Shown here in pieces: positions 1,365 through 62,682 of a DNA stretch of 64,000 bases. The stretch spans positions 26,925,847-26,989,846 of the forward strand of contig OX463859.1 of NCBI GenBank assembly GCA_949825065.1, written 5' to 3'. Below the pieces are notes generated by a model that was not told where the DNA came from, searched no databases, and saw only the letters and a list, made by a program, of their open reading frames with translations. This DNA comes from Odontocerum albicorne. Its lineage: Eukaryota > Arthropoda > Insecta > Trichoptera > Odontoceridae. How positions within the stretch are numbered: the stretch's first letter is position 1; the number at the start of each line of letters is the position of its first letter. The translations under genes were made by a program, and so were the position numbers.

Positions 1365-1475
1365 AATAATTAAAGATTGGAACAAATTGAGAAATTCTGC
1401 TGTTTGGGTAGTATTTTGTCAGATGGTGGAAGAGTCATTGAGGAGAGATATTGAACGGTGTGTAGCCATAGGGAA
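1365..1475 (+). pseudogene. Non-LTR reverse transcriptase remnant (family B), 5' part, split by LTR element
   Basis: Conceptual translation across frameshifts gives pieces of the segment that follows the polymerase motif in non-LTR reverse transcriptases: a 'LGSILSDGGRVIEE' stretch and then an 'ERCVAIGN' stretch. The same peptides occur on the minus strand at 30060-30175 (ERRVAIGN). The frame is cut at AIGN by the LTR element and resumes at 12776. Joining GGAA across the two flanks restores a continuous family B copy, so the LINE was already present when the LTR element inserted. It is non-functional. Confidence 0.7.
1472..1475. repeat. Target-site duplication GGAA (left)
   Basis: The four bases before the first TG of the 5' LTR are GGAA and match 12776-12779 directly after the last CA of the 3' LTR. 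A 4-bp duplication is usual for many Ty3/Gypsy-type integrases. Confidence 0.85.
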
Positions 1476-2014
1476 TGTTAGGACTGTATTTGATAAGTTG
1501 CATAGTTCACATCCCTGATATTAAATTCCTGACATATCATGTTTTATGTAACACGTGGTCTTGGTTACTAACTGAGATTTTAGTATATTTTTTAATACTG
1601 TGGGTAAGATTAGGACAATAGAAAAAAAACATCTCTTAGGTGGTCGCCTCGGGTTGTAAAAACTACATCCCGGATTGTAAAGAATTCCTTGGTCATTGTT
1701 TGTTTAAAAATAAAAAGGGTCTATAATAAAATCTACTTCGTAGTTATTTTCTATTGTAAAGATGGAAATTGTAAGGCCTGCGGTATCGGCTAAGCAATAA
1801 GACCTACGGTCCTATTGTGAGAAGACAAAAGTGAAGTATCATAAAAAAATTATACGGCTCAAGATGGAGTAATAAAGACTGTCTAGACAAACCCTTTTTG
1901 CTGAATTCTAAGGCACACCGATCTCAATTGTCTTTTAAAATAAAGTCTCATGTCTACCAAACGGCTATAGTATTTTTTTAAGTGACAAGGAAATCATGTA
2001 GCATCTCTTTCTCG

Positions 2015-2035
2015 CGCTGGCTATAAAAGAGCAGA
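2015..2035 (+). promoter_or_regulatory. Putative LTR TATA box
   Basis: 'GGCTATAAAAGAGCAG' lies in the middle of the LTR and is conserved in the 3' LTR near 12165. It is followed by a GC-richer stretch with 'CGACCAGACACTACG', a plausible start-site region. The assignment rests on motif and position only. Confidence 0.45.
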
Positions 2036-2372
2036 AATTTTACGAGCAGCTGGCTCTTCGCGACCAGACACTACGCTGACAGGACGTCTCTCCAGAAACG
2101 GTGTTTGTACGGAAGTCTGCCAGACTTGTTTTCCTCATGTATCACAGAGCTTCAGGACGTACAATTCGGTGAATATTATTCCTTTTATTTTAATGTTGGA
2201 TTTCGTCCGGGCGTATAACCATCGCTCAACTTAAATTCAAATTGTTATTGAAATCCCCCTTGCTAATTGTTTTTACAACACAGTCTTTGTAGCCAACTTA
2301 AAACTTTTTTTTTCTCGACATTCGTTCGAGTTTTTTTAATATTTTTTTCTTTTTTCTTTTTTCCATAATATA

Positions 2373-2405
2373 TTGGGTTGATGCAAAAGTAATGATCGTT
2401 TTTTA
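2373..2405 (+). repeat. mariner 1 left ITR
   Basis: Thirty-three bases identical to the reverse complement of 3626-3658; begins TTGGGTTGATGC. Confidence 0.95.
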
Positions 2406-2554
2406 TGATCCCAGGTAAAAAAAATTCCAGGTAAGAAATGATGAATAGTATCTTCTTTTAAATGATTCCATTGTATAAAGGATGCTTTCCCTCTACTTTC
2501 TATTCAGTTTTGGCCTGGCCAGAGTACAGTGAAAAGCCCTTGTATTTTTTCAAA

Positions 2555-3582
2555 ATGTCGGTCGATAAAGTGCATTAACGTCATTGTTTACTTTATGAAT
2601 TCCGTAAAGACAATACCGCGAGTGTGGCAACCAAAAACATTTGCGACGTGTATGGAGCAGATGTCATCAAAGTTCGACAGGTACAAAGATGGTTTACAAA
2701 ATTCCGATCTGAGGATTTTTCACTATTTGATAAACCACGTACCGGGCGGCCATTGAAGTCTGATGACAACAAGTTAAAAGTCATAATTGACACAAATCCA
2801 CGTCTAACCACCAGGGAGATCGCGTCGATGATGGGAGTCAACCAAACAACCGTATTAAGACATTTGAAGCGTATGGGGATGGTTTCGCGGTACAACGTTT
2901 GGATACCTCATCAATTGTCGGCTGCCAATTTATTGGACCATGTTTCAACGTGCTTTGCTTTGAGTGCGAGACAAAAACATGAACCTTTTTTGCATCGTTT
3001 GGTAACAGGAGATGAGAAATGGGTCGTGTACAACAACGTGACAAGAAAAAGACATTGGGCTATACCTGGACAAGCCCCATTAACAACTTCGAAGGCCGAA
3101 ATCCATCAAAAAAAGTAATGCTTTGTGTTTGGTGGAATTGTAAGGGTATTGTGTATTTTGAACTCTTGGAACGCAATCAGACAATTACAACAGAACGATA
3201 TTGTCAGATATTATCCAAATTGAACATCGCCCTTCAAAAGGATAGACCAGAAATGGTAAACAGAAAAGGGGTAGTGTTTCATCCCGACAACGCGTGACCA
3301 CATGTGGCTTTGATGACCCAATACAAGCTAAATGAGTTGAATTGGGATGTTATCAAGCATCCACCGTATTGTCCAGATCTTGCTCCTTCCGATTTTCATT
3401 TATTACGATCGCTGCAAAAAATTTTAAATGATAAAAAATTTGATACAATAGAGCAGGTAAAAACATCCCTTACTACATTTTTCGCATCAAAATCCACGGA
3501 ATTTTACACTAATGGTATTAATAAGTTGATAGAAAGATGGGAGAAGGTTATAAGAACTGATGGAAATCATAAAATTGATTAA
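2555..3582 (+). pseudogene. mariner transposase, D,D34D, disrupted
   Basis: The frame starts at the ATG at 2555 (MSVDKVH) but meets TAA at 2576, in a position where relatives usually have leucine. It then runs through the N-terminal HTH region (QVQRWFTKF, TGRPLKSDD, TTREIASMMGV) and the first catalytic Asp in TGDEKW. A length change in the A-run at 3109-3115 shifts the frame. The second Asp is in FHPDNA and is followed by TGA at 3295, which looks like CGA (Arg) decayed at a CpG. The third Asp is in PYCPDLAPSD. Counting the stop position, 34 residues separate the second and third acids, as in mariner proper. Reading resumes at 3304 and ends at 3582. Two stops and one frameshift make it non-functional. 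Confidence 0.93.
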
Positions 3583-3625
3583 ATAAATATTACAAATCTA
3601 AAAAAAAAATGTTTAATTGTATATG

Positions 3626-3658
3626 TAAAAAACGATCATTACTTTTGCATCAACCCAA
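3626..3658 (-). repeat. mariner 1 right ITR
   Basis: Perfect inverse of the left 33-bp ITR; followed by the duplicated TA. Confidence 0.95.
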
Positions 3659-3919
3659 TAATAAACTGTTTTGTTTTAAAATTATACTTTGTTTAATTGT
3701 GTCGCCTTGTCCCGCTGAGAGTTGAGAGAGAGTTATTCAGAGTTACAGGAATCTAACGAATCCCTGAGATCTAAAAAGTACTTGTCTCTTTAAGAAGCCG
3801 GCTGACCTGTGCGGGCCTGTCGCACCTTGGTAAGATTGATATTTGGTGAATTGATTTATGTAATCAATTGTGTATATATTATTATTGTTTCTTAAATATA
3901 GCAAATAGGCGTGACATTT

Positions 3920-3937
3920 TGACGCCCGAACGTGCGG
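3920..3937 (+). other. Primer binding site (tRNA-Lys-like) of the LARD-like element
   Basis: Three bases after the 5' LTR the sequence reads TGACGCCCGAAC. The well-known lysine-tRNA primer site begins TGGCGCCCGAAC, so 11 of the first 12 bases match; the match weakens afterwards. The offset from the LTR edge is acceptable for Gypsy-like elements. Confidence 0.7.
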
Positions 3938-6834
3938 CGTACTTTGTATCTCTGTCTCTCTAGATCTCTCGTTGGACAAGGTTTTTTTATTTATTATTTG
4001 TTTTGTGTGTTTTTAATAATAATTTGTTTACAGGAAAGTGTATATATATTTTTCCGCGACCGTTTGTTTTCACTATCTTTGTTCCCACGTGTTCATCATT
4101 GTTCGCGACTACATGGTCATCCTTGTTCCCACGTGCTACGGGCTCCGAGTTGGAAAGGCCGTTTTTCGAGTCTTTTTGGAATAGATTTTTAGTTAACTTT
4201 TTCCAAATATTTTCTTGTTAAGAATTGTGTGTTCCTTATCAAATTTGATTTAAAAAGTCAGTGTGTTTAGAAATTTGAACCACGTTTCTGCAGCGTTTGT
4301 TTCCACTATTCGTCACCACGTGGCCACTTTGTTCCCACGTGTATACGGGTTTCATTTTAGTTAAACTGTTTTCGATTTTTTTATTAATGAATTGTGAATA
4401 TAATTTTAGTTAATCGAGGGAAGAAAAAGAATACATTTTCTAGTTAATGTTCGCTAAATATTCCGTTTGAAAGAGAATTGTGTTCCGATTTATTTGAGAC
4501 CAATCTCATATTAAGAGAGTTCGTGGGTAGGCAAAGCGCACGAAACGCCTATCTTTCGTGAAATAATTCGCTGTTCGGTTGGCCCAGTTTTTCGGGTTTT
4601 CTTGCAAGGATTAATCATTTCTTGGTGCTCGGTTTGTCGAAATATGGAGAATTTTAACGGTTTAATATTGCAAAAAAGTAAAAGTTTCGCTTAAGTTAGA
4701 TTCCTCTTTTTCTTAAAAAAGATTCCGTTGGAGCGAGTTATTTTTGGTTTCGATCCTGATTGGCGACAATGGCCGAATCATGAATTGAGTAGTTTCTTTC
4801 AGTAGTGGATCTATGAAGGATATAGTAGTGTATAGAGATTGGATTACATTTTGGTCTATAGTCGTTTGTTGTTAAAATGGAGCTTCAGTTGGCCTCGTGC
4901 CTCGCGGTTGGTTGTTAACACAATTTAGGAAGTTTGTAAATTTGAACTGCGTTGCTAAGAGAAATATTGTTTGTTTAACAAAACGATCGAGTTAGAATTG
5001 TTGTTTTTGTTAGTGAGGTCTTGATTTGCTTCGGTTGGGCTTTTTGTCCTATTGTTTTATTGTTGCAATGTATCCAATTAAGGCCGAGGGAAGATCTCTT
5101 CGTTCTGCTCCTCTGTTTTCAAGAAAAGAAGTGCGCGGTCAGAGAATTGTAAATAGGACTAGTGTGGTATTTCGTGAATAGTCAGGCTTAAAAAGAATTA
5201 AATTCCACGTGGATGGCTAGGCAAAGTGTTATATGCGCATAACTTTCGTAAAAAAAAATTCCAGTCGCGTAAATGATCCGGTTTACGAATTATGTTTAAG
5301 AATAAATAATAATTATTATCTCAGTGGTCAGTTTGTGATTTTGCGAATTGTGGTAGAACGAAAAGGAGATAAAGGATAGGAATCCAATGTTAAGAAAATT
5401 TGAATCAATGAATAGAAGTTGCGTTAAATCAAACACCGGGAAGATAGACGCCATTTTGTTTTGCAGGTAGAAAAACTGCACGATGTTTTACCCCTTGAGG
5501 AAATAGATTCGCATGGTATCGTGTTTGAAACAGATTAAATTAATAAAATAATACAGGAAGTGCGTGGTCATTTGAATGACAATTACTGTTGACTTTCGTA
5601 GAATATTCCAGTTGAATAAGAATTGGTTCCTGGTTATTTGAGATCAATCTCACCTTCGAAAGGAGAAAGTAACTTCCGTAAATAATGTTTCAACCGCGCT
5701 AGTGATCCGGTTTACGGATTTTGTTTAGGAATAATTAATAGTCAAAATCGCAGTGTTCGGTTTAGTAATTTTCAGAGTCAAGGGCAAAAAGAGGAATGGC
5801 GTCGTAATTATGGATAGTTTATTTTGTTAACGGTGCAGCATGTCAAGCAGTAAAAATTGTGGAAGAAGGCTCTAGATGTGAAGAGTATTGCGTCATAGTT
5901 ATATTTTTTTGTGATAGCAGTGGCTGTTATCAAACAATATGTTGGAATAGAGAGAACTGGAATTAAGTTCTAGAAGGGTTTCTTGTAATTAAATATTACA
6001 AATTATTACGCGAAACTACTGTTTTTATGGCGAGTTTGTGTAGATAGTATTGCGTCATAATTAATGTCGTTCGGTGATATTGGCTTTTCTTATTGACAAA
6101 GGGATTGTTAGAAAGGGTTGTTGTATTTTACTGTAGATGAGTCAGTCCATGCTAAGTTTTCTTATATACGCTGTCTGTGAGCGCAGAATGGAATTACGTT
6201 TTAGATAAATTCATTTGTTCTCTTATCAATACCTTTTGATAGACAGGTTTTGTTATTGGGTCTGGATCGAATTTCGGGTGGTTGAATTCCTTTGTTTTTG
6301 TATCAGTACATCTTGATAGCACGGTTGGTTTATAAATTCGAAAAGAATTTCGTTTTGAATAGATTCTTTTGTTTTGTATCGGTGCATTGGGTACAAAGGA
6401 GATGGCTTGTTTGTCCTTGAGGTAGAAGTAAATAGACTTCCTTCAACTTGCCAAAGTTCCTGTGAGATGCAGCATTAACCTTCCCAGAATTAAGGGTAAA
6501 AAGGTAGTGATTGTCATTTAGTCAATAGAGTTTTCCTAGAAGGGTATGGGTCGGAAGACTTTAGGATAAAGCGCAAACTAGACAGGCTTACGTATGGAAA
6601 CAGTCGAGCCCCTTACAGATTATATTCCAAGAAGAGGGAATTTAAAATCATTCTTTAGAGCCACCCTTGTCAGATAACGAATTATCGCGGGTGTAAGAAG
6701 TAATAGCTTAAAGATAGCACAGAGGTTATCTGTTTCCACCCGTCATCAGTTGAGGATTTGTGAAAACTCTGCTCAGTTTTTGAGCTAATAATTAAGGAAG
6801 ATAAAGGATCTCGCCTCGCTTCCTTTTACTTAAG
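3938..6834 (+). other. LARD-like element, 5' interior: non-coding
   Basis: No protein similarity seen. The stretch holds several diverged internal duplications: a CCCACGTG-containing block around 4085-4135 and again near 4330; a block with 'GAGA(C/T)CAATCTCA' near 4498 and 5640; and a block containing 'GATCCGGTTTACG' near 5275 and 5707. They suggest growth by segmental duplication. Function is unknown; packaging or structural RNA signals are possible but unproved. Confidence 0.6.
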
Positions 6835-8430
6835 AACGTGGCCAGGTAATCGGTAGTAGAGTATACCATTCCATGTCATAAAAGTCAGGAGAGAATTAGT
6901 CCGGATTCTCGTAGTCAAAGCACATAAAAGGAGCATGGCCAAGTGATAAATAGAGTATAGCCTCCTTGTCATTGCAATAACGGTAGAGTTATTTGTGTAT
7001 TTTCTCTTTAGAAGCTAAAGAGCGTGGTCGAGTGACCAGTAGTCGAGTATAGAACTGTTTCTCGTCGTAATAGGGAGATCGTAGTTGAGTATTCTCTCAT
7101 TAGAGACTAGAGAGCGTGGTCAGGTGACCAATACATGAGAATGGAACTCTTTGTCGGCGTAACAAAGAAATCGTTAGTTGTGTTATCTCTTTTGAAGTTA
7201 GAGAACGTGGCCAGGTGACAAGAAGTCGATCATAGCACTCTTTTGTCGTTGTAAAAACGAGAGTTAGTTTGTTATCTCTTTTTGAAATTGGAGAACGTGG
7301 CCAAGTGACTAGAAGTCGATTATAGCACTCTTTTGTCGTTGTAAAAACGAGAGTTAGTTTGTGTTATCTCTTTTGAAATTAGAGAACGTGGCCAGGTGAC
7401 TAGAAGTCGATTATAGCACTTTTGTCGTTGTAATAACGAGTAAGTTAGTTTGTGTTATCTCTTTTGAAATTAGAGAACGTGGCCAGGTGACTAGAAGTCG
7501 ATTAGAGCACTCTTTATCGTTGTAATAACGAGTGAGTTAGTTTGTGTTATCTCTTTTGAAATAAGAGAACGTGGCCAAGTGACAAGAAGTCGGGTATAGC
7601 CTCTTTTGTCGTTGTAAAAACGAGTGAGTTAGTTTGTGTTATCTCTTTTGAAATAAGAGAACGTGGCCAAGTGACAAGAAGTCGGGTATAGCCTCTTTTG
7701 TCGTTGTAATAACGAGTGAGTTAGTTTGTCTTATCTTTTTTTGAAATTAGACAACGTGGCCAAGTGACTAGAAGTCGACTATAGCACTCTTTAGTCGTTG
7801 TAAAAACGAGAGAGTTAGTTTGTTATCTCTTTTGAAATTAGAGAACGTGGTCAGGTGACAAGAAGTCGATTATAGCACTCTTTTGTCGTTGTAATAACGA
7901 ATGAGTAAGTTTGTGTTATCTCTTTTGAAATTAGAGAACGTGGTCAGGTGACATGAGGTCGAGTGTAGCATTCGTTGTCGTTGTAATAACGTGAGAGCTA
8001 GTTGTGTTTTCTCTCTTTAGAAACTAGAGAGCGTGGTCGGGTGACCAGTGATTAAGTAGAGAACTCTGTCTTAATGAAGAGAGCGTTAGAAGAGTATTCA
8101 CTCTTTAAACTAAAGATCGTGGTCGGGTGACCAATAATTGTGCATAGAAACCTCTATTGTCTTAATAAACTGAGCGTTAGATGAGTACTCGCTCCGTAGA
8201 ACTAAAGAGCGTGGCTAGGTAACCAGAGCGCGAGTATAGCCTCTTTGTGGTTGTAGTAACAGGAGAGTTATTCTCTCATTGTAGACTGGAAAGCGTGGCC
8301 AGGTGATAGCTGGAGATTATAAAGTTCTGGTCGTTTTACCAGAAACGGAGTTGGGAACTCGGTTGGAACTCGGTTGGAACTAGAAAGCGTGACCTGGAGT
8401 CAAATTATTAAATGTACCATTCTTGTCTTG
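6835..8430 (+). repeat. Tandem array, ~91-bp unit, ~18 units, inside the LARD-like element
   Basis: Units begin with a conserved GARCGTGGYCAGGTGAC core at about 6835, 6933, 7020, 7110, 7203, 7293, 7384, 7475, 7567, 7659, 7752, 7843, 7936, 8029, 8116, 8207, 8292 and 8387. Spacing is 90-93 bp. Each unit also has 'TTTTGTCGTTGTAA' and 'TTATCTCTTTTGAAA'. Central units (7200-7940) are most alike and edge units most diverged, the pattern expected from unequal exchange or template slippage. The period is not a multiple of three and no frame stays open. Confidence 0.9.
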
Positions 8431-11400
8431 TAAGGAGGAAGGAATACAGGGGATATTCTCTTATAAGAAAATGGTTGAAGTTTAGTAGTTGAAGTTTAGT
8501 AGTTACTATATACTATAAATTGACTATTGAATACAGTCTAGCTTAGAATAGACCTTATGCGGTGAGTCCGTCGTCACACGATAAGGACGCGAACATAGGA
8601 TATGGGTCCGGTCCTGAGCACAGCTTCTGTGCCCGGGTGGATTATAGATAAGCTGATAGTTGACAGTGTAGTGATGGGTTCGTCAGCGCCTAATTGGGAG
8701 TCATTCATGGTTAGGAAAATGGTTCTTAAAATAATTAAATTAAATATTTTGTTATATACCTTGAGGATATACACTGTCGGGTTCCTTGGTGAATGACATT
8801 TTAGTATGTCAAGTGACGTCACCGGTGCGAATTTATTATTGCACAAGGGTGAATGAATAAGTGAGCTGGCCGTGGGCAATCTCGTATGGATTCATTTCCA
8901 TATGTTCTATGTATGGGCTGGTGTTCAACCCGGTGACTCCACCAAAGAATACCTGAAAGGTTTGTCTTCCTAATTGTTGTGTTATCTGGTAAGAATTCGT
9001 GAGGTATTCCGAACTTCTTAGTGGAGGGGTGTACCCATCCCACGGGAGTAGCGTTTCTAAGATTGTATAGAGGATTCAGTAGAGTATCTATCATGGATAA
9101 TTGCTTTGCGCTAATGCTATCGCTGGACGGTGGTCCGTAAGTTTAATAGCAGTAGAATTGTTCAGTAGTGCTATGGAGCAGGTGTTGCTTTCCACCAAGT
9201 TGAATTTTGGAAAAGGTTGTACAGATGGTACAGTGGAGTATCCGTTGCGGATAGTTGCACGTAGCAAGTGTTAATTTTTGGACGGGGTTCCATGATGATA
9301 ATAGCCGTTGATGTGTTCAGAATTTCTTGTTGGAGAGGTGTAGCCTTCCACGGTGTTGAAGGGCTATAATATTGAAGTGGATCATTTTGTTGACGAATTG
9401 TCTCCTGTTGAGTGTGGAGTATATAATTTGAAATAAAAATAATTAATTTTTTTTGTTGTTGTGTATAATATTATAATATATTTTGTTCTGTCAAAGCACT
9501 CACAGAGTACGGGGTCGCAAGGTAGTCTGTGAGGCAGCGCGATGAAAAGTTTATGGGAAATGTGGAGGTCGTAGTGGTGCTGCTATGAGGAATAAGGATA
9601 AGGGTATGGTGCGTTCTCGAATGAACTTTGACAGAATTTATGTAACTATTACGGTGATTACCGTTTATATTGTTGTTCCGTTATGAACTTGAACGGAATT
9701 TATGTAACTGTTACGGTGATTACCGTTGTATTGTTTGCTCTGTTTTGAGTTTTGGGATAAGAGCTCTGGTTACTGTAGCGTTGGCAGCATGCGTCATGAC
9801 TGGGGGCTGCGTTTCTTGGATAGTGAAATCTCGAAACGAACCCGTGCCCTTGTGGTCGGACGTATGGTGGGTCTCGCTCCGTAAATTGAATTCCCAGTTT
9901 TTTTTTTGTTGTTTATTATTGTCTCCTTACTTTGGCTCGGTGTGAATCACCGAGAGGCCTTGGGCAGCCTTAAGAGTCCAGGTTGGGAGAAGCTAGCCTC
10001 CCAACCGATAAAGGTTTTGAAGATGGCCTGAGAATACATCTGGGATGGATTGCTGTGTGTCTCCATCACGGGCTTCATGAACCCATATTAGCAATTGCGG
10101 ATACAGATATGTTCTGGCATGTACACGTTTCGGGCTAAGGTAGCTTCGGTTCGTGAGGGTCGCGTGCCTGTCGCTCGGATCCTAGATGACCAAAGTTGTG
10201 TGTGTGGTATCACGTGATTCTTGTCTCTGTTCTGGGGGTCCGTGGACGCGTCCTGCTTTCAGCCGGGGCTACTCGCCAATTTTCTATTATGTTTTGTGTT
10301 TTTTTTTTTAAGGGGCTAAGGGTCCATTTGTACAGTTACCATTCTGTGTGGTGGTGAATTGTTACTGCAACGGTTGTCCAGACCTTGGAGTCTGAGGAAA
10401 CCCAAGTTATGTGAAAAGTTCTGTGTGAACTATAGGATATTTGTAATTCGATGTATAGAGTTCTGTGTGAACTTAAGGAGATATAAGTCCTAAATTTGAG
10501 TTCTGTGTGAACTATAGGATATTCGTAATTTGATGTATAAAGTTCTGTGTGAACTTAAGGAGATATAAATCCTAGATTTGAGTTTTGTGTGAACTATAGG
10601 ATATTTGTAATTCAATGTGTTAGGTTCTGTGTGAACCTTTTGAGATTTATAAATGATAAATATTAGCAATAGCGAAATTTAATGTTATCATTGTTTTTAT
10701 CACTACGCCCGGTAGTGGCCGGAAGTTTGGACCGCCTTGTGCTGTGTGCCGGGGGCGGTCGTATTGTGGAAAGCACCCGTGATAGGGGGCCGCTTTAAAA
10801 TTTATCGGTTCCCGACTGTGCAGTCTAAGGAAGGGCGAAGAAAAGATTGTGTTGTGAGGTAATGTCTTTAGTGTATCAAGGGAAGTGGGGTTGTAATTTT
10901 GTGTTGAGCCATGTGGGTGGTTGGTTGGACGAAATCCGCATTGAAAGGGGAGAATTTCAGGAATCACCTTTGGAGATCAGCTGGTTCATAGGTTGGCCCG
11001 TGACCTGCAGTGAACCCACTAAAGTCAGCCCTTGGGAGAAGACTGCAGTTTTGTTTTATTATTTTGGCTAAGCTGTGTCCATTTCTCAGAATATTGTAAT
11101 GAGAGAATGGCTAAGCTGATTTGTTTCCCTCTTGGTCAACATTTGATTGTTAGTTGACCTTGCTGTTTAATATTTTATTAATTATTACCAGATTGTATAA
11201 TATTATTGTAATTTCCTTTTTGTGTGTGATTTGATTTTATTACTATTATATCAATTTCTTGTAACCTTGTACCATTTTGTAATGTTTTTTTTTATATGTG
11301 TAAGGAGTTGGGAAGGATTGTTTCCCGCTCCTGTGTAACCGGCTTTGTGTTGATGTTAAATTGTTTAGGAGCCTAGTCAAGGAAAGGTTTTACGTGGTTT

Positions 11401-11611
11401 CCTTCCTCGTGGTCGGTCTTACACCAATTAAGACTACACCTTTGGGCAAATGCTGACTAGAGATAAATCGGCCACGAAACCGTATCCGGTGAGGGGTACA
11501 TACACCCCTCGCTCTTTAGAAATATCCCTCGGACTGATGTGTCTGTGATGTATGGAAAATAATTTTTTTTTTTTTTTTGTTGTTTGTTTTTTTTTTGTTC
11601 TTTCGGTAACT
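8431..11611 (+). other. LARD-like element, 3' interior: non-coding, with short duplications
   Basis: No gag, pol or env similarity. At 9622-9735 a ~62-bp unit (TGAAC-TT-GA-..., 'TACGGTGATTACCGTT') occurs twice. The remainder is GC-richer than the flanking genome, with several short open stretches that I do not recognise. Confidence 0.6.
10418..10650 (+). repeat. Tandem array, ~41-bp unit (82-bp higher order)
   Basis: 'GTTCTGTGTGAAC' recurs at about 10418, 10460, 10500, 10542, 10582 (GTTTTGTGTGAAC) and 10624. Alternate units end in ACTATAGGATATT and ACTTAAGGAGATAT, giving an 82-bp dimer. Confidence 0.85.
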
Positions 11612-11621
11612 TAGGATGGGG
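11612..11621 (+). other. Polypurine tract of the LARD-like element
   Basis: AGGATGGGG directly precedes the 3' LTR. It is short and contains one T, but its position is right for plus-strand priming. Confidence 0.55.
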
Positions 11622-12775
11622 TGTTAGGACTGTATTTGATAAGTTGCATAGTTCACATCCCTGATATTAAATTCCTGACATATCATGTTTTATGTAACAC
11701 GTGGTTTTGGTTACTAACTGAGATTTTAGTATATTTTTTAATACTGTGGGTAAGATAAGGATAATAGAAAAAAAACATCTCTTAGGTGGTCGCCTCGGGT
11801 TGTAAAAACTACATCCCGGATTGTAAAGAATTCCTTGGTCATTGTTTGTTTAAAAATAAAAAGGGTCTATAATAAAATCTACTTCGTAGTTATTTTCTAT
11901 TGTAAAGATGGAAATTGTAAGGCCTGCGGTATCGGCTAAGCAATAAGACCTACGGTCCTATTGTGAGAAGACAAAAGTGAAGTATCATAAAAAATTTATA
12001 CGGCTCAAGATGGAGTAATAAAGACTGTCTAGACAAACCCTTTTTGCTGAATTCTAAGGTACACCGATCTCAATTGTCTTTTAAAATAAAGTCTCATGTC
12101 TACCAAACGGCTATATTATTTTTTTAAGTGACAAGGAAATCATGTAGCATCTCTTTCTCGCGCTGGCTATAAAAGAGCAGAAATTTTACGAGCAGCTGGC
12201 TCTTCGCGACCAGACACTACGCTGACAGGACGTCTCTCCAGAAACGGTGTTTGAACGGAAGTCTGCCAGACTTGTTTTCCTCATATATCACAGAGCTTCA
12301 GGACGTACAATTCGGTGAATATTATTCCTTTTATTTTAATGTTGGATTTCGTCCGGGCGTATAACCATCGCTCAACTTAAATTCAAATTGTTATTGAAAT
12401 CCCCCTTGCTAATTGTTTTTACAACACAGTCATTGTAGCCAACTTTAAACTTTTTTTTTTCTCGACATTCGTTCGAGTTTTTTTTATATTTTTTTCTTTT
12501 TTCTTTTTTCCATAATATAATAAACTGTTTTGTTTTAAAATTATACTTTGTTTAATTGTGTCGCCTTGTTCCGCTGAGAGTTGAGAGAGAGTTATTCAGA
12601 GTTACAGGAATCTAACGAATCCCTGAGATCTAAAAAGTACTTGTCTCTTTAAGAAGCCGGCTGACCTGTGCGGGCCTGTCGCACCTTGGTAAGATTGATA
12701 TTTGGTGAATTGATTTATGTAATCAATTGTGTATATATTATTATTGTTTCTTAAATATAGCAAATAGGCGTGACA
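11622..12775 (+). repeat. 3' LTR of the LARD-like element
   Basis: 1154 bp, TGTTAGG to GTGACA, uninterrupted. It shows the pre-insertion state of the mariner site at about 12510 (CCATAATATAATAAAC). I counted about a dozen substitutions and small run-length changes against the 5' LTR, close to 1 percent. Confidence 0.95.
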
Positions 12776-13370
12776 GGAACCACGGCAATAGAACACTAAA
12801 ACATAAATAATTGAACCGGACAGTATCAATATATGTTAATATGGAAGTTCACAATAGTATTTTGGTGCCAACTTGAGGGTATAGGAGTGATACGTGGACA
12901 TGGTAAATTACTAATAGGAGCCAAATAAATGCTGTAGAAATGCAAAATTTGACACGACCACATGTAGTGACAGTGTATAACAGAATATAGAACAAAGTCA
13001 TTAGACAGGAATGTGAATTTAAGGCAGATGTACTAAGTAAGATGGAGAAGAGCACGCATATATTGTTTGAGCATTTGGAAAGAATGAATGAAGAACGTCT
13101 AACAAAACAGATATATAGTGTATATGTTAGTGGAATATGTGTGAAAAAAGAGCAAGAAAACCATGGATGCATCAAGAAAATGATGTGCTGAAAGAAGGAA
13201 ATGTAGAAAGTAAGAGAATTCGTAGAAATTGAATGAGATGATATATGGATGTAGAAGAGGCTATGAATGTGTGTAGAGATAGGAAATTCTGACCCTCTAT
13301 TTTCTCTGCCTATCCCGACAGGGAAATTGCGTGTTGGTATGTATTGTCTTTTGTGAATCAGCACATTTTG
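12776..13370 (+). pseudogene. Non-LTR reverse transcriptase remnant (family B), C-terminal part
   Basis: This continues the frame cut at 1475. Translation across frameshifts gives NNRTLK-like sequence, then EVHNSILVP, YNRIRNKVI-like, 'LERMNEERLTKQIY', and the C-terminal 'MDVEEAMNVCRDRKF' and 'FSAYPDREI'. The FGH-x-x-RMNEERLTK block is a usual hallmark of the region downstream of the RT palm in RTE/jockey/CR1-type LINEs. Copies of the same family lie at 25488, 27950, 29735, 41285, 52550 and 60400. Many stops; dead. Confidence 0.75.
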
Positions 13371-22004: not shown

Positions 22005-22854
22005 TGTCACGCCTTTTTGCTATATTAAGAAACAACAATTATATGTACACAATTGATTACATAAATCAATTCACCAAATATCAATCTTACCAAGGTGACA
22101 GGGCCGGACAGGTCAGTCGGCTTCTTAACGAGACAAGTACTCTTTAGGTCTCTGGGGTATGTTGGGTTCTCTTAACTCTGAATAAGTCTCTTTCAACTCT
22201 CGCAGGGACAGGCGACACAATTAAACAAGAACAATTTGTAATGAAGCAGTTTATTATATTGTAAAAAAAAAGAAAAAAGAAAAAAATATATAAAAAAACT
22301 TGACGAATGTCAAGAAAAAAGTTTAAAATTGGCAAGGAAATAAAAATGTGTTGTATTTAGCAAGGGAGATTCCAATAACAATTTAGAATTAAAGTTGAGC
22401 GATGGTTAAAATGTGCGGACGAAATTCACATTAAAAATAGGAGGAATAATATTCACCCGTAATCAAGATGGCGTTCTGGAGTTCTGTGATATATGAGGAA
22501 GAGCAGTGTCGGACTTACGTCTGAATCTCACCACGATCTGCACGGAATGGGGCGAGCGAGCTAGCGCCCGCTTCCCCTTCAAGGAAGTACAAAGCGACAG
22601 GGGTGCCAATCTCGACGTAAGTCGTACGTGACAAAGTTGTCATTGAATAAAATGTACCTGACTGCAAGGGTAGCTACCCTTATTTTATTGTCTTTAGTAT
22701 TTTAAAATATTCAAGTATTTCATAATATTTTAATCTTCCTGTTTTCAAGGCAAACACATGGTCTCGACACCACAAGTTTCATAAATTATGATATGTCGCG
22801 AATTAACAATTTCGAGGACGTGAAGTATGCAATTTAACAAATATAGTCCTAACA
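22005..22854 (-). mobile_element. Solo LTR of the LARD-like family
   Basis: On the minus strand it runs TGTTAGGAC to GTGACA, matching the LTRs at 1476 and 11622 over much of its length, notably near its 3' end (TTAATATAGC-like, ACAATTGATTACATAAATCA on the plus strand). It is 850 bp against 1154, so it carries deletions, and is clearly older. AAAT flanks both sides (22001-22004 and 22855-22858) as a 4-bp target duplication, which makes it a solo LTR left by recombination. Confidence 0.88.
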
Positions 22855-50154: not shown

Positions 50155-51316
50155 GGTTTAAAAATATTTGGTAAGAGAACATATTTGGTAAGTAAACATA
50201 TTTGGTAAGAAAACATATTTGGTAAGCGAACATATTTGGTAAGAAACATATTTGGTAAGGAAAAATATTTGGTAACAAAACATATTTAGGAAGAACACAC
50301 ATTTGGTAAGAAAACATATTTGGTGAGAAAACATATTTGGTAAGAAAACATATTTGGTAAGAAAAGATATTAGGTAAGACAACATATTTGGTTATATAAC
50401 ATATTCGGTAAAAAAGCATATTTGGTAAGAAAACATATTTTGTAAGAAAACATATTTGGTAAGAAAACCTATTAGGTAAAAAAACATATTTGGTTATATA
50501 ACATATTTGGTAAGAAAACATATTTGGCTAGAAAACAAACACATTTGGTAAGGAAACATATTTGGTTATAAAACGTTTTTGGTTAGAAAACACATTTGGT
50601 AAGAAAACATATTTGGTAAGGAAACATATTTGGCTATATAACATATTTGGTAAAAAAAAGCATATTTGGTAAGAAAACATATATTGTAAGAAAACATATT
50701 TGGTAAGAAAACATATTAGGTAAGAAAACATATTTGGTTATATAACATATTTGGTAAGAAAACATATTTGGTTAGAAAACGAACACATTTGGTAAGGAAA
50801 CATATTTGGTTATAAAATGTTTTTATTAAATATAACATATTTGGTAAGAAAACATATTTGGTTAGAAAACATATTTGGTAAGAAAGCATATTTGGTTAGA
50901 AAACATATTTGGATACAAAACATATTCTGTAAGAAAACCTATTTGGTTATAAAAAACATATTTGGTAAGAAAACATATGTGGTAAGATAATATATTTGGT
51001 AAGAAAACATATTTGGTAAGAGAACATATTTGGTAAGAAAATGTATTTTGTTAGAAAACATATTTGGTAAGAAAACATATTTGGTAAGAAAACATATTTG
51101 GTAAGAAAGCATATTTCGTTAGAAAACATATTTGGATTTAAAACATATTTTGTAAGAAAACCTATTTGGTTATAGAAAACATATTTGGTAAGAAAACATA
51201 TTTGGTAAGAAAATATATTTGGTAAGAAAACATATTTGGTAAGAGAACATATTTGGTAAGAAAACGTATTTTTTTAGAAACCATATTTGGTAAGAAACCA
51301 TATTTGGTATGAAAAG
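50155..51316 (+). repeat. Minisatellite of 17-bp units (~68 units)
   Basis: The unit is CATATTTGGTAAGAAAA with variants (GGTTATATAA, GGTTAGAAAA, GGAAGAACA). Because 17 is not a multiple of three, three units form a 51-bp/17-residue period and the minus strand is open in several frames, with peptides such as MFSYQICFLTKYVFLPN. Larger blocks (for example 50420-50520 and 50640-50760) repeat as higher-order copies. Confidence 0.95.
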
Positions 51317-61504: not shown

Positions 61505-61655
61505 ACATCTATGGAGCAGTAGAAAAACCAAAATTTCTACGCCATTTTAATATTTCACCTTTCATAAGAACGTACTCAAAATTTCATTTCGATCTGTCTA
61601 TTCTTTCTTTGTTTACAAGCCATTTGAAGTTGACGTGTCAGTGTATTTTTTAACA

Positions 61656-62682
61656 ATGGAAAAATCCGAATATCGTGCAGTGATTAAATTCTTTGTTTTG
61701 GAAGGTTTATCGGCTACTGAGATCCATGCAAAGATGGTGAAAGTATTAAAGGAGTCTTCTCCTTCATTTCCAACCGTTCACCGATGGGTTTTGGAGTTTA
61801 AGCGTGGCCGTACAAGCGTTGAAGACGATCCACGCTCAGGACGTCCAAAAAGTGCATCAACACCAGAAATCATAGCGAAAATACAGGATATGGTTTTGGA
61901 AGATCATCAATCGACTATGGATGTGATAGCTAACAACATGGCATATTTTGGCTGAAATTTTGGGTTTCAAAAAACTGTGTGCACAATAGGTGCCGCATTT
62001 GCTAACAATGCAACAAAAACACGTTCGAATGCGACTTTCTGAGCAACATTTGGAGCAATTTCGAAAGGATAAAAAGGATTTTCTGCGTCGATTCATCACT
62101 ATAGATAAGACTTGGGTCTACCACCATGATCCTGAATCAAAACAAGAGGCTAAGGATTGGTGTGAACCAGGCACTTTGGCTCCGAAGCGAGTTCGTGTCC
62201 AGAAATCGGCCAAGAAGGTGTTAGCGTCAGTTTTTTGGGATGCAAAAGGAATTTTATTGATAGATTATCTCCAAACTGGTAAGACAATCAACTCTGATTA
62301 TTATTGTAACCTTTTGGACCAGTTGGATGAAAAAAATTGTGAAAAAAGACCCGGTTTGCAGAAGAAAAAAATTATTTTTCATCAAGACAATGCACCTGCT
62401 CACACAGCTCAAAAAACCATCGCGAAAATCAGTGAATTGGGGTACGAATTGTTGCAGCATCCACCCTATTCGCCAGATTTAGCTCCCTCTAACTTCTGGC
62501 TGTTCTCACATCTCAAAAAATTCCTTCGTGGAAAGCATTTTTCATCAAACGAAGAGGTTATAGCCGTCGTAGAGGAGTATTTTGCAGGCCTTCCAGAAAG
62601 TCACTTCCGTGATGGGACAACAAAGTTGGAAGATCGTTGGACCAAGTGTATTGATCTTATGGGAGACTATACTGAGCAATAA
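61656..62682 (+). pseudogene. mariner transposase, irritans-like, with D-to-N at the third catalytic site
   Basis: Starts MEKSEYRAVIKFFVLEGL at 61656. The N-terminal HTHs follow (VHRWVLEFKRGRTSVEDD, SGRPKSAST, STMDVIANN). A small deletion near 61935 shifts frame; WHILAEILGF then continues to a TAG at 61987. From 61990 the frame is open for 230 codons: ITIDKTWVYHHDPE (first acid), IFHQDNAPAHTA (second acid), 'PPYSPDLAPSNFWLF' (third position), 'GLPESHFRDGTTKLEDRWTK', stop at 62680-62682. Thirty-four residues separate the second acid from the third position, but that residue is Asn rather than Asp. In usual relatives the first motif reads DETW; here it is DKTW. A frameshift, a stop and the D-to-N change abolish strand transfer; DNA binding could persist in fragments. 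Confidence 0.93.

What the first reader, a model, noticed from the sequence alone, without database searches (positions are those of the whole stretch)
1476..12775. Ten-kilobase LTR retrotransposon with no gag or pol in an animal genome
Seen: near-identical LTRs, GGAA target duplications, a lysine-tRNA-like primer site, a short purine tract and 7.7 kb of interior with no recognisable protein. Known: LARDs of this build are described mainly in plants. Inferred: the copy moved recently with enzymes supplied in trans and its interior is maintained for another reason, such as packaging, length or structural RNA. A conserved non-coding interior of this size in an arthropod would be notable.
Basis: partly seen in the sequence, partly recalled or inferred. 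Interest (0 to 1): 0.78.

Follow-up and report, generated by a model that had tools for sequence, protein, structure and literature searches.

The report
Non-coding retrotransposon with coding partner
A ten-kilobase jumping element with no protein genes belongs to a large, recently active family, and it shares its end sequences with a gene-carrying element in the same genome that probably moves it; similar pairs are already known in mouse.

Summary
At 1476-12775 lies a complete LTR element: 1,154-bp LTRs (12 substitutions and one 1-bp indel between them), GGAA target duplications, PBS, PPT, and a 7,705-bp interior with no recognisable protein domain in six frames. The 5' LTR is split by a 1,286-bp mariner.

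It is a family, not a single deletion. All 20 copies read from the same 1.29-Gb genome carry the same collinear non-coding interior (one lacks much of its repeat array and 3' end). LTR pairs were found in 19 of 20, 98.96-100% identical; target duplications are 4 bp in 10 of 10 readable.

I found a likely helper. Of 100 listed sites with the family's LTR-end+PBS motif, 29 are followed by one coding element's gag and six more by an integrase. Of 99 gag hits at 94% identity or more, 85 have an integrase downstream. Of the 29 sites, 26 end in the family's PPT+LTR-start motif.

So this is a LARD-type parasite, built like mouse ETn/MusD, of a probably Ty3/gypsy-like element. Non-coding LTR elements with tandem repeats are published for Culex, and LARDs are annotated in bees. 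New member of a known kind; the located helper and LTR exchange between copies add interest.

The parts
1472..1475 (.). target site duplication GGAA, left copy
1476..3916 (+). 5' LTR, interrupted by a mariner; starts TGTTAG, ends TGACA
2373..3658 (+). nested mariner, 1,286 bp, terminal inverted repeats, TA on both sides; transposase frame interrupted (three open segments)
3920..3938 (+). primer binding site TGACGCCCGAACGTGCGGC, 3 nt after the LTR; relatives have TGGCNCC here
3917..11621 (+). 7,705-bp non-coding interior, collinear with 20 other copies; G over C and T over A on the + strand
6837..8440 (+). array of about 92-bp units; 17 matches to a core CGTGGYYRRGTRAY (one substitution allowed) plus a weaker one at 8387; 13 to 32 matches in 19 of 20 other copies, 3 in one; a stem-loop of -2.0 kcal/mol or better before the core in 12 of 18 units
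8517..8916 (+). most conserved stretch of the interior (mean identity to aligned copies 96-98%)
10417..10662 (+). three tandem units of 82 bp containing AGTTCTGTGTGAACT-type inverted repeats
11613..11621 (+). polypurine tract AGGATGGGG next to the 3' LTR
11622..12775 (+). 3' LTR, 1,154 bp; TATAAA at LTR position 547, AATAAA at 898 among others
12776..12779 (.). target site duplication GGAA, right copy

Best explanation
This is a non-autonomous LTR retrotransposon of the LARD type, one copy of a high-copy, recently mobile family. The LTR drives an RNA whose interior of about 8 kb codes for nothing. The RNA is packaged and reverse-transcribed by Gag and Pol supplied in trans by a coding element, probably of Ty3/gypsy type, that keeps the same LTR-end, PBS, PPT and LTR-start motifs. 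Shown: the anatomy, the lack of detectable coding, the family, the recent movement, and a coding element with the shared end motifs. Inferred: that this element's proteins do the work, that the RNAs are co-packaged (from LTR exchange between copies), and that the interior carries cis-acting packaging or structural signals.
For: Anatomy and lack of coding. Family: the interior query gave 41 rows, 40 of 492 candidates scored, one row being this copy and two rows one other place; I read 20 of the 39 other places and 20 of 20 carry the collinear interior. LTR pairs in 19 of 20 copies, 98.96-100% identical, 8 at 100%, several compared over part of the LTR only (180 bp at least). 4-bp target duplications in all 10 copies with both ends readable. 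Indels relative to this copy are multiples of three in 234 of 1,805, against coding. Shared ends: LTR-end+PBS pattern 205 exact sites, reversed control 0; PPT+LTR-start pattern 211, control 0. Partner: at 13 PBS sites sampled, 9 carry the LARD interior and 4 an open gag. Of 100 listed PBS sites, 29 have gag downstream and 34 an integrase, 28 both, 35 either; controls upstream or on the wrong strand 0; no overlap with the 16 sites marked LARD. 85 of 99 gag hits have an integrase 2-6 kb on; of the 80 whose distance was printed, 79 lie at 3.40-3.48 kb; many of these integrases sit in an open frame of 1,065 codons. 26 of the 29 gag-bearing PBS sites have the shared PPT+LTR start downstream, 25 at 8.9-10.4 kb and one at 12.3 kb. 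LTR exchange: copies 33 and 35 differ by 0.1% in interior blocks but 4.7% in the LTR, 44 of 50 differences within LTR positions 150-549.
Against: Mobilisation itself is not shown; there are no RNA data. The partner's LTR could not be read, only its end motifs matched. Six of the 35 sites have an integrase but no listed gag, so they may be other elements. Pfam found no known family in the 100-aa gag piece. The window copy's own PBS has TGAC where the pattern has TGGC, so it is not among the 205 sites. Other coding elements in the genome could also supply enzymes.
Confidence: 0.85

Rival explanations
1. The LARD is a replacement derivative that shares its 3' half with the coding partner. The partner's pol probably ends near 5 kb after the PBS (inferred from frame lengths) but its PPT lies at about 9.2 kb, so about 4 kb of partner sequence could be the source of LARD sequence downstream of the repeats. 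Only the 5' half of the LARD would then be foreign.
For: PBS-to-PPT distance of 8.9-10.4 kb in 25 of 29 gag-bearing sites against gag and integrase positions.
Against: None found; the DNA search that would test it did not complete. The one interior stretch searched, 6000-7000, has no scored match at a gag-bearing PBS site.
Confidence: 0.4
2. The interior is passive ballast: an old coding element decayed past recognition, then amplified by a helper, without selection on the interior.
For: Of five pair comparisons of divergence along the interior, three show no significant shared pattern (Spearman -0.07, 0.00, 0.33), which fits mosaic recombination. Structure scores are stronger on the minus strand (z -2 or lower in 16 of 34 blocks) than on the plus strand (8 of 34), against selection on the plus-strand RNA.
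Against: No domain trace in six frames. Interior pairs stay 91-100% identical while the LTR diverges up to 33%, although in 11 of 55 pairs the LTR is not the more divergent part. Two of the five comparisons share conserved places (p 0.026 and 0.002).
Confidence: 0.35
3. Single deletion copy of an ordinary coding element.
For: None.
Against: 20 of 20 copies read have the same non-coding interior.
Confidence: 0.01
4. The helper is a BEL/Pao element.
For: BEL/Pao elements with long open frames are present. One LTR match on C39 lies 2.1 kb from a PF05380 match.
Against: Compared by eye, no listed PF05380 match lies within about 10 kb of the 100 listed PBS sites, whereas gag and integrase of another element do.
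Confidence: 0.04

Closest known systems
ETn/MusD pair of mouse (PMC6466679, passages seen)
   Same: LTR element without coding capacity that outnumbers (about 240 against about 100 in one analysis cited there) a coding relative which supplies the enzymes; many recent insertions and solo LTRs
   Different: MusD belongs to class II ERVs of the betaretrovirus group; trans-mobilisation was demonstrated there, not here. A tandem array of about 92 bp is a feature here
LARDs such as Sukkula of grasses (PMC7215508 and PMC3532108, passages; the original Kalendar 2004 is not held)
   Same: LTRs, core domain without proteins, multi-copy, assumed to depend on enzymes in trans
   Different: LARDs are said to have LTRs of about 4.4 kb and central domains of about 3.5 kb (PMC3532108); here LTRs are 0.86-1.24 kb with an interior of about 7.7 kb, and a coding partner with shared end motifs was located
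Non-coding LTR elements with tandem repeats of Culex quinquefasciatus, cqUNK series (PMC3286476, section 14 read)
   Same: No coding, LTRs over 98% identical, PBS, PPT, tandem arrays (periods include 88, 92 and 93 bp), sizes up to 14.6 kb
   Different: No master copy found there; target duplications mostly 5 bp there, 4 bp here
LARDs annotated in honey bee and bumblebee (PMC4028053, PMC4414376, passages)
   Same: Large non-coding retrotransposon derivatives in insects, 3.1% of the honey bee genome
   Different: Class labels from a pipeline; those authors left derivative elements out of detailed inspection unless they carried another element

Membership tests
LARD | paired LTRs with target duplication | tested here: met
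LARD | PBS and PPT present | tested here: met
LARD | large interior without retrotransposon proteins | tested here: met
LARD | interior conserved across a multi-copy family | tested here: met
LARD | conserved RNA secondary structure | tested here: inconclusive
   z -2 or lower in 8 of 34 blocks on the plus strand and 16 of 34 on the minus strand; one further block had too few rows. Single-sequence folds of two stretches of the array z about -2.2; unit stem-loops z -6.2 with a simple shuffle of related units
ETn/MusD-type helper pair | coding relative shares LTR ends, PBS and PPT | tested here: met
   end motifs only; full LTR of the coding element not read
ETn/MusD-type helper pair | mobilisation in trans | not testable with these tools
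   needs an assay
Ty3/gypsy (of the helper) | integrase towards the C-terminal end of pol, no BEL peptidase | tested here: inconclusive
   Integrase about 3.4 kb after gag start, often in a 1,065-codon frame; PF05380 not near the listed PBS sites by eye; order within pol inferred from frame lengths; RT not typed
TRIM | total size under about 1 kb (PMC3532108) | tested here: not met
   10,014 bp

The most novel reading that the evidence does not exclude
The non-coding interior is a selected RNA machine: the array of 13-32 units of about 92 nt, many with a stem-loop before a shared CGTGG core, is a multivalent Gag-binding or packaging signal that lets a long RNA with no genes out-compete its coding parent, so the family is an RNA parasite whose length and repeat number are under selection.
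Probability: 0.17. Interest if true: 0.72.

Novelty: new member of a known kind. Interest (0 to 1): 0.5.

Why it matters
Non-coding LTR elements are often reported without a known helper, as in Culex and in the ant TRIM paper. Here one genome holds both partners in many recent copies with matching end motifs, plus copies whose LTR and interior have been reshuffled. That makes it a natural system for asking what part of a retrotransposon RNA is needed to be packaged, and whether a long gene-less interior is under selection.

Tried and rejected
Rejected: single deletion copy; decayed gag/pol (the nested mariner's open pieces were recognised by the same library); BEL/Pao helper. Rfam found nothing at gathering threshold in the window and one chance match at E 9.4 in the interior. 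ARAGORN found no tRNA in the window. The gag piece matches no Pfam family and is not in the LARD copies (two chance tblastn hits, E 6.4). Selection on the interior: mixed (its pair comparisons are not strictly independent). Of nine places around the nearest LTRs, three were LTR pairs whose ends match the LARD interior and six had no adjoining LARD interior, one of these beside an inverted nested LTR with the 3' end of an interior. Not reached: tRNA identity of the primer, host taxon, RT clade, PF17921, comparison of the LARD 3' half with the coding element.

Of the 150 integrase rows I left out the two on C424. PBS and PPT lists are the first 100 of 205 and of 211.

Literature: searches. PMC3286476 section 14 read, plus passages; PMC4028053, PMC4414376, PMC3532108, PMC6466679, PMC7215508 passages only; Kalendar 2004 not held under the DOI I tried, which I gave from memory.
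Full report
The element is real and complete. The two LTRs are 1476-3916 and 11622-12775; without the nested mariner they differ by 12 substitutions and one 1-bp indel in about 1,157 columns. The mariner, 2373-3658, has terminal inverted repeats and TA on both sides, and two of its three open segments are recognised by Pfam (HTH_48, Transposase_1). GGAA flanks both ends. A PBS-like stretch starts 3 nt after the 5' LTR and a short purine tract abuts the 3' LTR.

The interior, 3917-11621, codes for nothing recognisable. Its longest stop-to-stop segment is 109 codons, below the mean of first-order shuffles (121.6; 140 of 200 reach 109); segments of 50 codons or more number 50 against 41.8 in shuffles, a mild excess. 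Pfam scans of six frames, in nine pieces per strand with X at stops, gave one match on the + strand (E 0.044) and three on the - strand (best E 0.016), all below the families' cut-offs. Indels between copies and this one are multiples of three in 234 of 1,805 cases. Base composition is skewed: G 24.4%, C 14.6%, T 34.5%, A 26.5% on the + strand.

It is one of many. The genome (1.287 Gb in 1,241 contigs) gave 41 rows for one kilobase of interior, with 40 of 492 candidates scored, and 42 rows for the LTR, with 40 of 1,408 scored; the tool calls such counts lower bounds. Of the 39 other places with the interior I read 20. All 20 have the same interior in the same order; 68-97% of it was aligned per copy, and mean identity per 200-bp window runs from 77 to 98%. 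Copy 41 lacks much of the repeat array and the interior's 3' end. LTR pairs were found in 19 of 20, 98.96-100% identical, 8 at 100%; several were compared over part of the LTR because the fetched piece ended, and in the twentieth no 3' LTR was found within the piece. Target duplications are 4 bp in all 10 copies whose two ends could be read. Ten complete copies are 9.36-10.42 kb long, a sample biased to shorter ones. So the family has moved recently; the window copy is among the older ones.

The helper. Reading the LTR end and PBS of the copies gave a pattern with 205 exact sites genome-wide and 0 for the reversed control (the first 100 listed). At 13 of the sites with one PBS variant I read 301 bp each: 9 carry the LARD interior; 4 carry instead a near-identical sequence with an open frame that begins with a methionine a little over half a kilobase after the PBS. 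A protein search with 100 residues of it gave 150 scored matches of 566 candidates, 99 of them at 94% identity or more over the query, most in frames of 376-437 codons. Integrase (PF00665) gave 150 scored of 623, many in a frame of 1,065 codons. Of the 99 gag hits, 85 have an integrase 2-6 kb downstream on the same strand; of 80 distances printed, 79 are 3.40-3.48 kb and one 5.7 kb; none lies 2-6 kb upstream. Of the 100 listed PBS sites, 29 have gag and 34 an integrase downstream, 35 either, 28 both; 16 coincide with scored LARD interiors; no site has both kinds; controls are 0. The six sites with integrase alone are less certain. The PPT+LTR-start pattern has 211 exact sites, control 0; it follows 26 of the 29 gag-bearing PBS sites (25 at 8.9-10.4 kb, one at 12.3 kb), 15 of the 16 LARD sites at 7.7-9.1 kb, 7 of the 9 sampled LARD sites at 7.2-9.1 kb, and 37 of 46 unclassified ones at 3.4-12.1 kb. 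So a coding element keeps the same LTR-end, PBS, PPT and LTR-start motifs as the LARD. A gag frame followed by a long pol frame with integrase, and no BEL peptidase nearby by eye, fit Ty3/gypsy, as do 4-bp duplications in the LARDs (recalled); I could not type the RT.

Recombination. LTR and interior do not share one history. Copies 33 and 35 differ by 0.1% in interior blocks but 4.7% in the LTR; 44 of the 50 differences lie at LTR positions 150-549, none beyond 750, and none in the first 700 nt after the LTR. Copies 43 and 47 differ by 3.2% and 31%. In 44 of 55 pairs the LTR is the more divergent part; in 11 it is not. Strand transfer between co-packaged RNAs would leave this; that step is inferred.

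What the interior does is open. It carries 17 matches to a core CGTGGYYRRGTRAY, none in 13001-64000 of the window and 0.04 expected in shuffled interior. A stem-loop before the core is more stable than shuffles (z -6.2) and one after it weakly so (z -2.7), but units are related, the shuffle is simple, and 6 of 18 units show little or no stem-loop. Alignment-based folding gives z -2 or lower in 8 of 34 blocks on the plus strand but 16 of 34 on the minus strand, which speaks against selection on the plus-strand RNA alone. Variance of divergence along the interior is 2 to 12 times binomial, yet the same places are conserved in only two of five comparisons. Packaging by a repeated hairpin is the mechanism I find most likely, at low confidence.

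Compared with what is known: ETn/MusD of mouse is the closest working model (PMC6466679, passages); Culex has non-coding LTR elements with tandem repeats and no master copy (PMC3286476, section 14); bees have annotated LARDs (PMC4028053, PMC4414376, passages). The finding is therefore a new member of a known kind, with an unusually clear partner.

Noticed in passing
coding loci such as G000 C1:53861512 (+): The coding partner's PPT lies about 9.2 kb after its PBS while gag and pol probably end near 5 kb, leaving about 4 kb unexplained: an envelope-like gene, or sequence shared with the LARD.
   Followed up: partly
window 22005-22520 (-): A piece matching the last 520 bp of the LTR at 81%, probably a degraded LTR of the same family.
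   Followed up: no
window 61551-62682 (+): A second, different mariner transposase in two adjacent open frames (Pfam HTH_48, Transposase_1, DDE_3).
   Followed up: partly
window 50160-51315: Large 17-bp tandem array, about 67 copies.
   Followed up: no
L043/L044 against other copies: LTR length differs by lineage (856-861 bp in nine copies, 1,244 bp in one, 1,154 bp in the window) while the interior stays alike.
   Followed up: yes
lower rows: A second group of gag relatives at 63-69% identity, mostly with open frames of 267 or 389 codons; none of the 21 compared lies near a listed PBS site.
   Followed up: partly
G000 C41:8333534-8361980: Seven BEL peptidase fragments within 28 kb, each with one TAA inside, suggesting a tandem duplication.
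   Followed up: no
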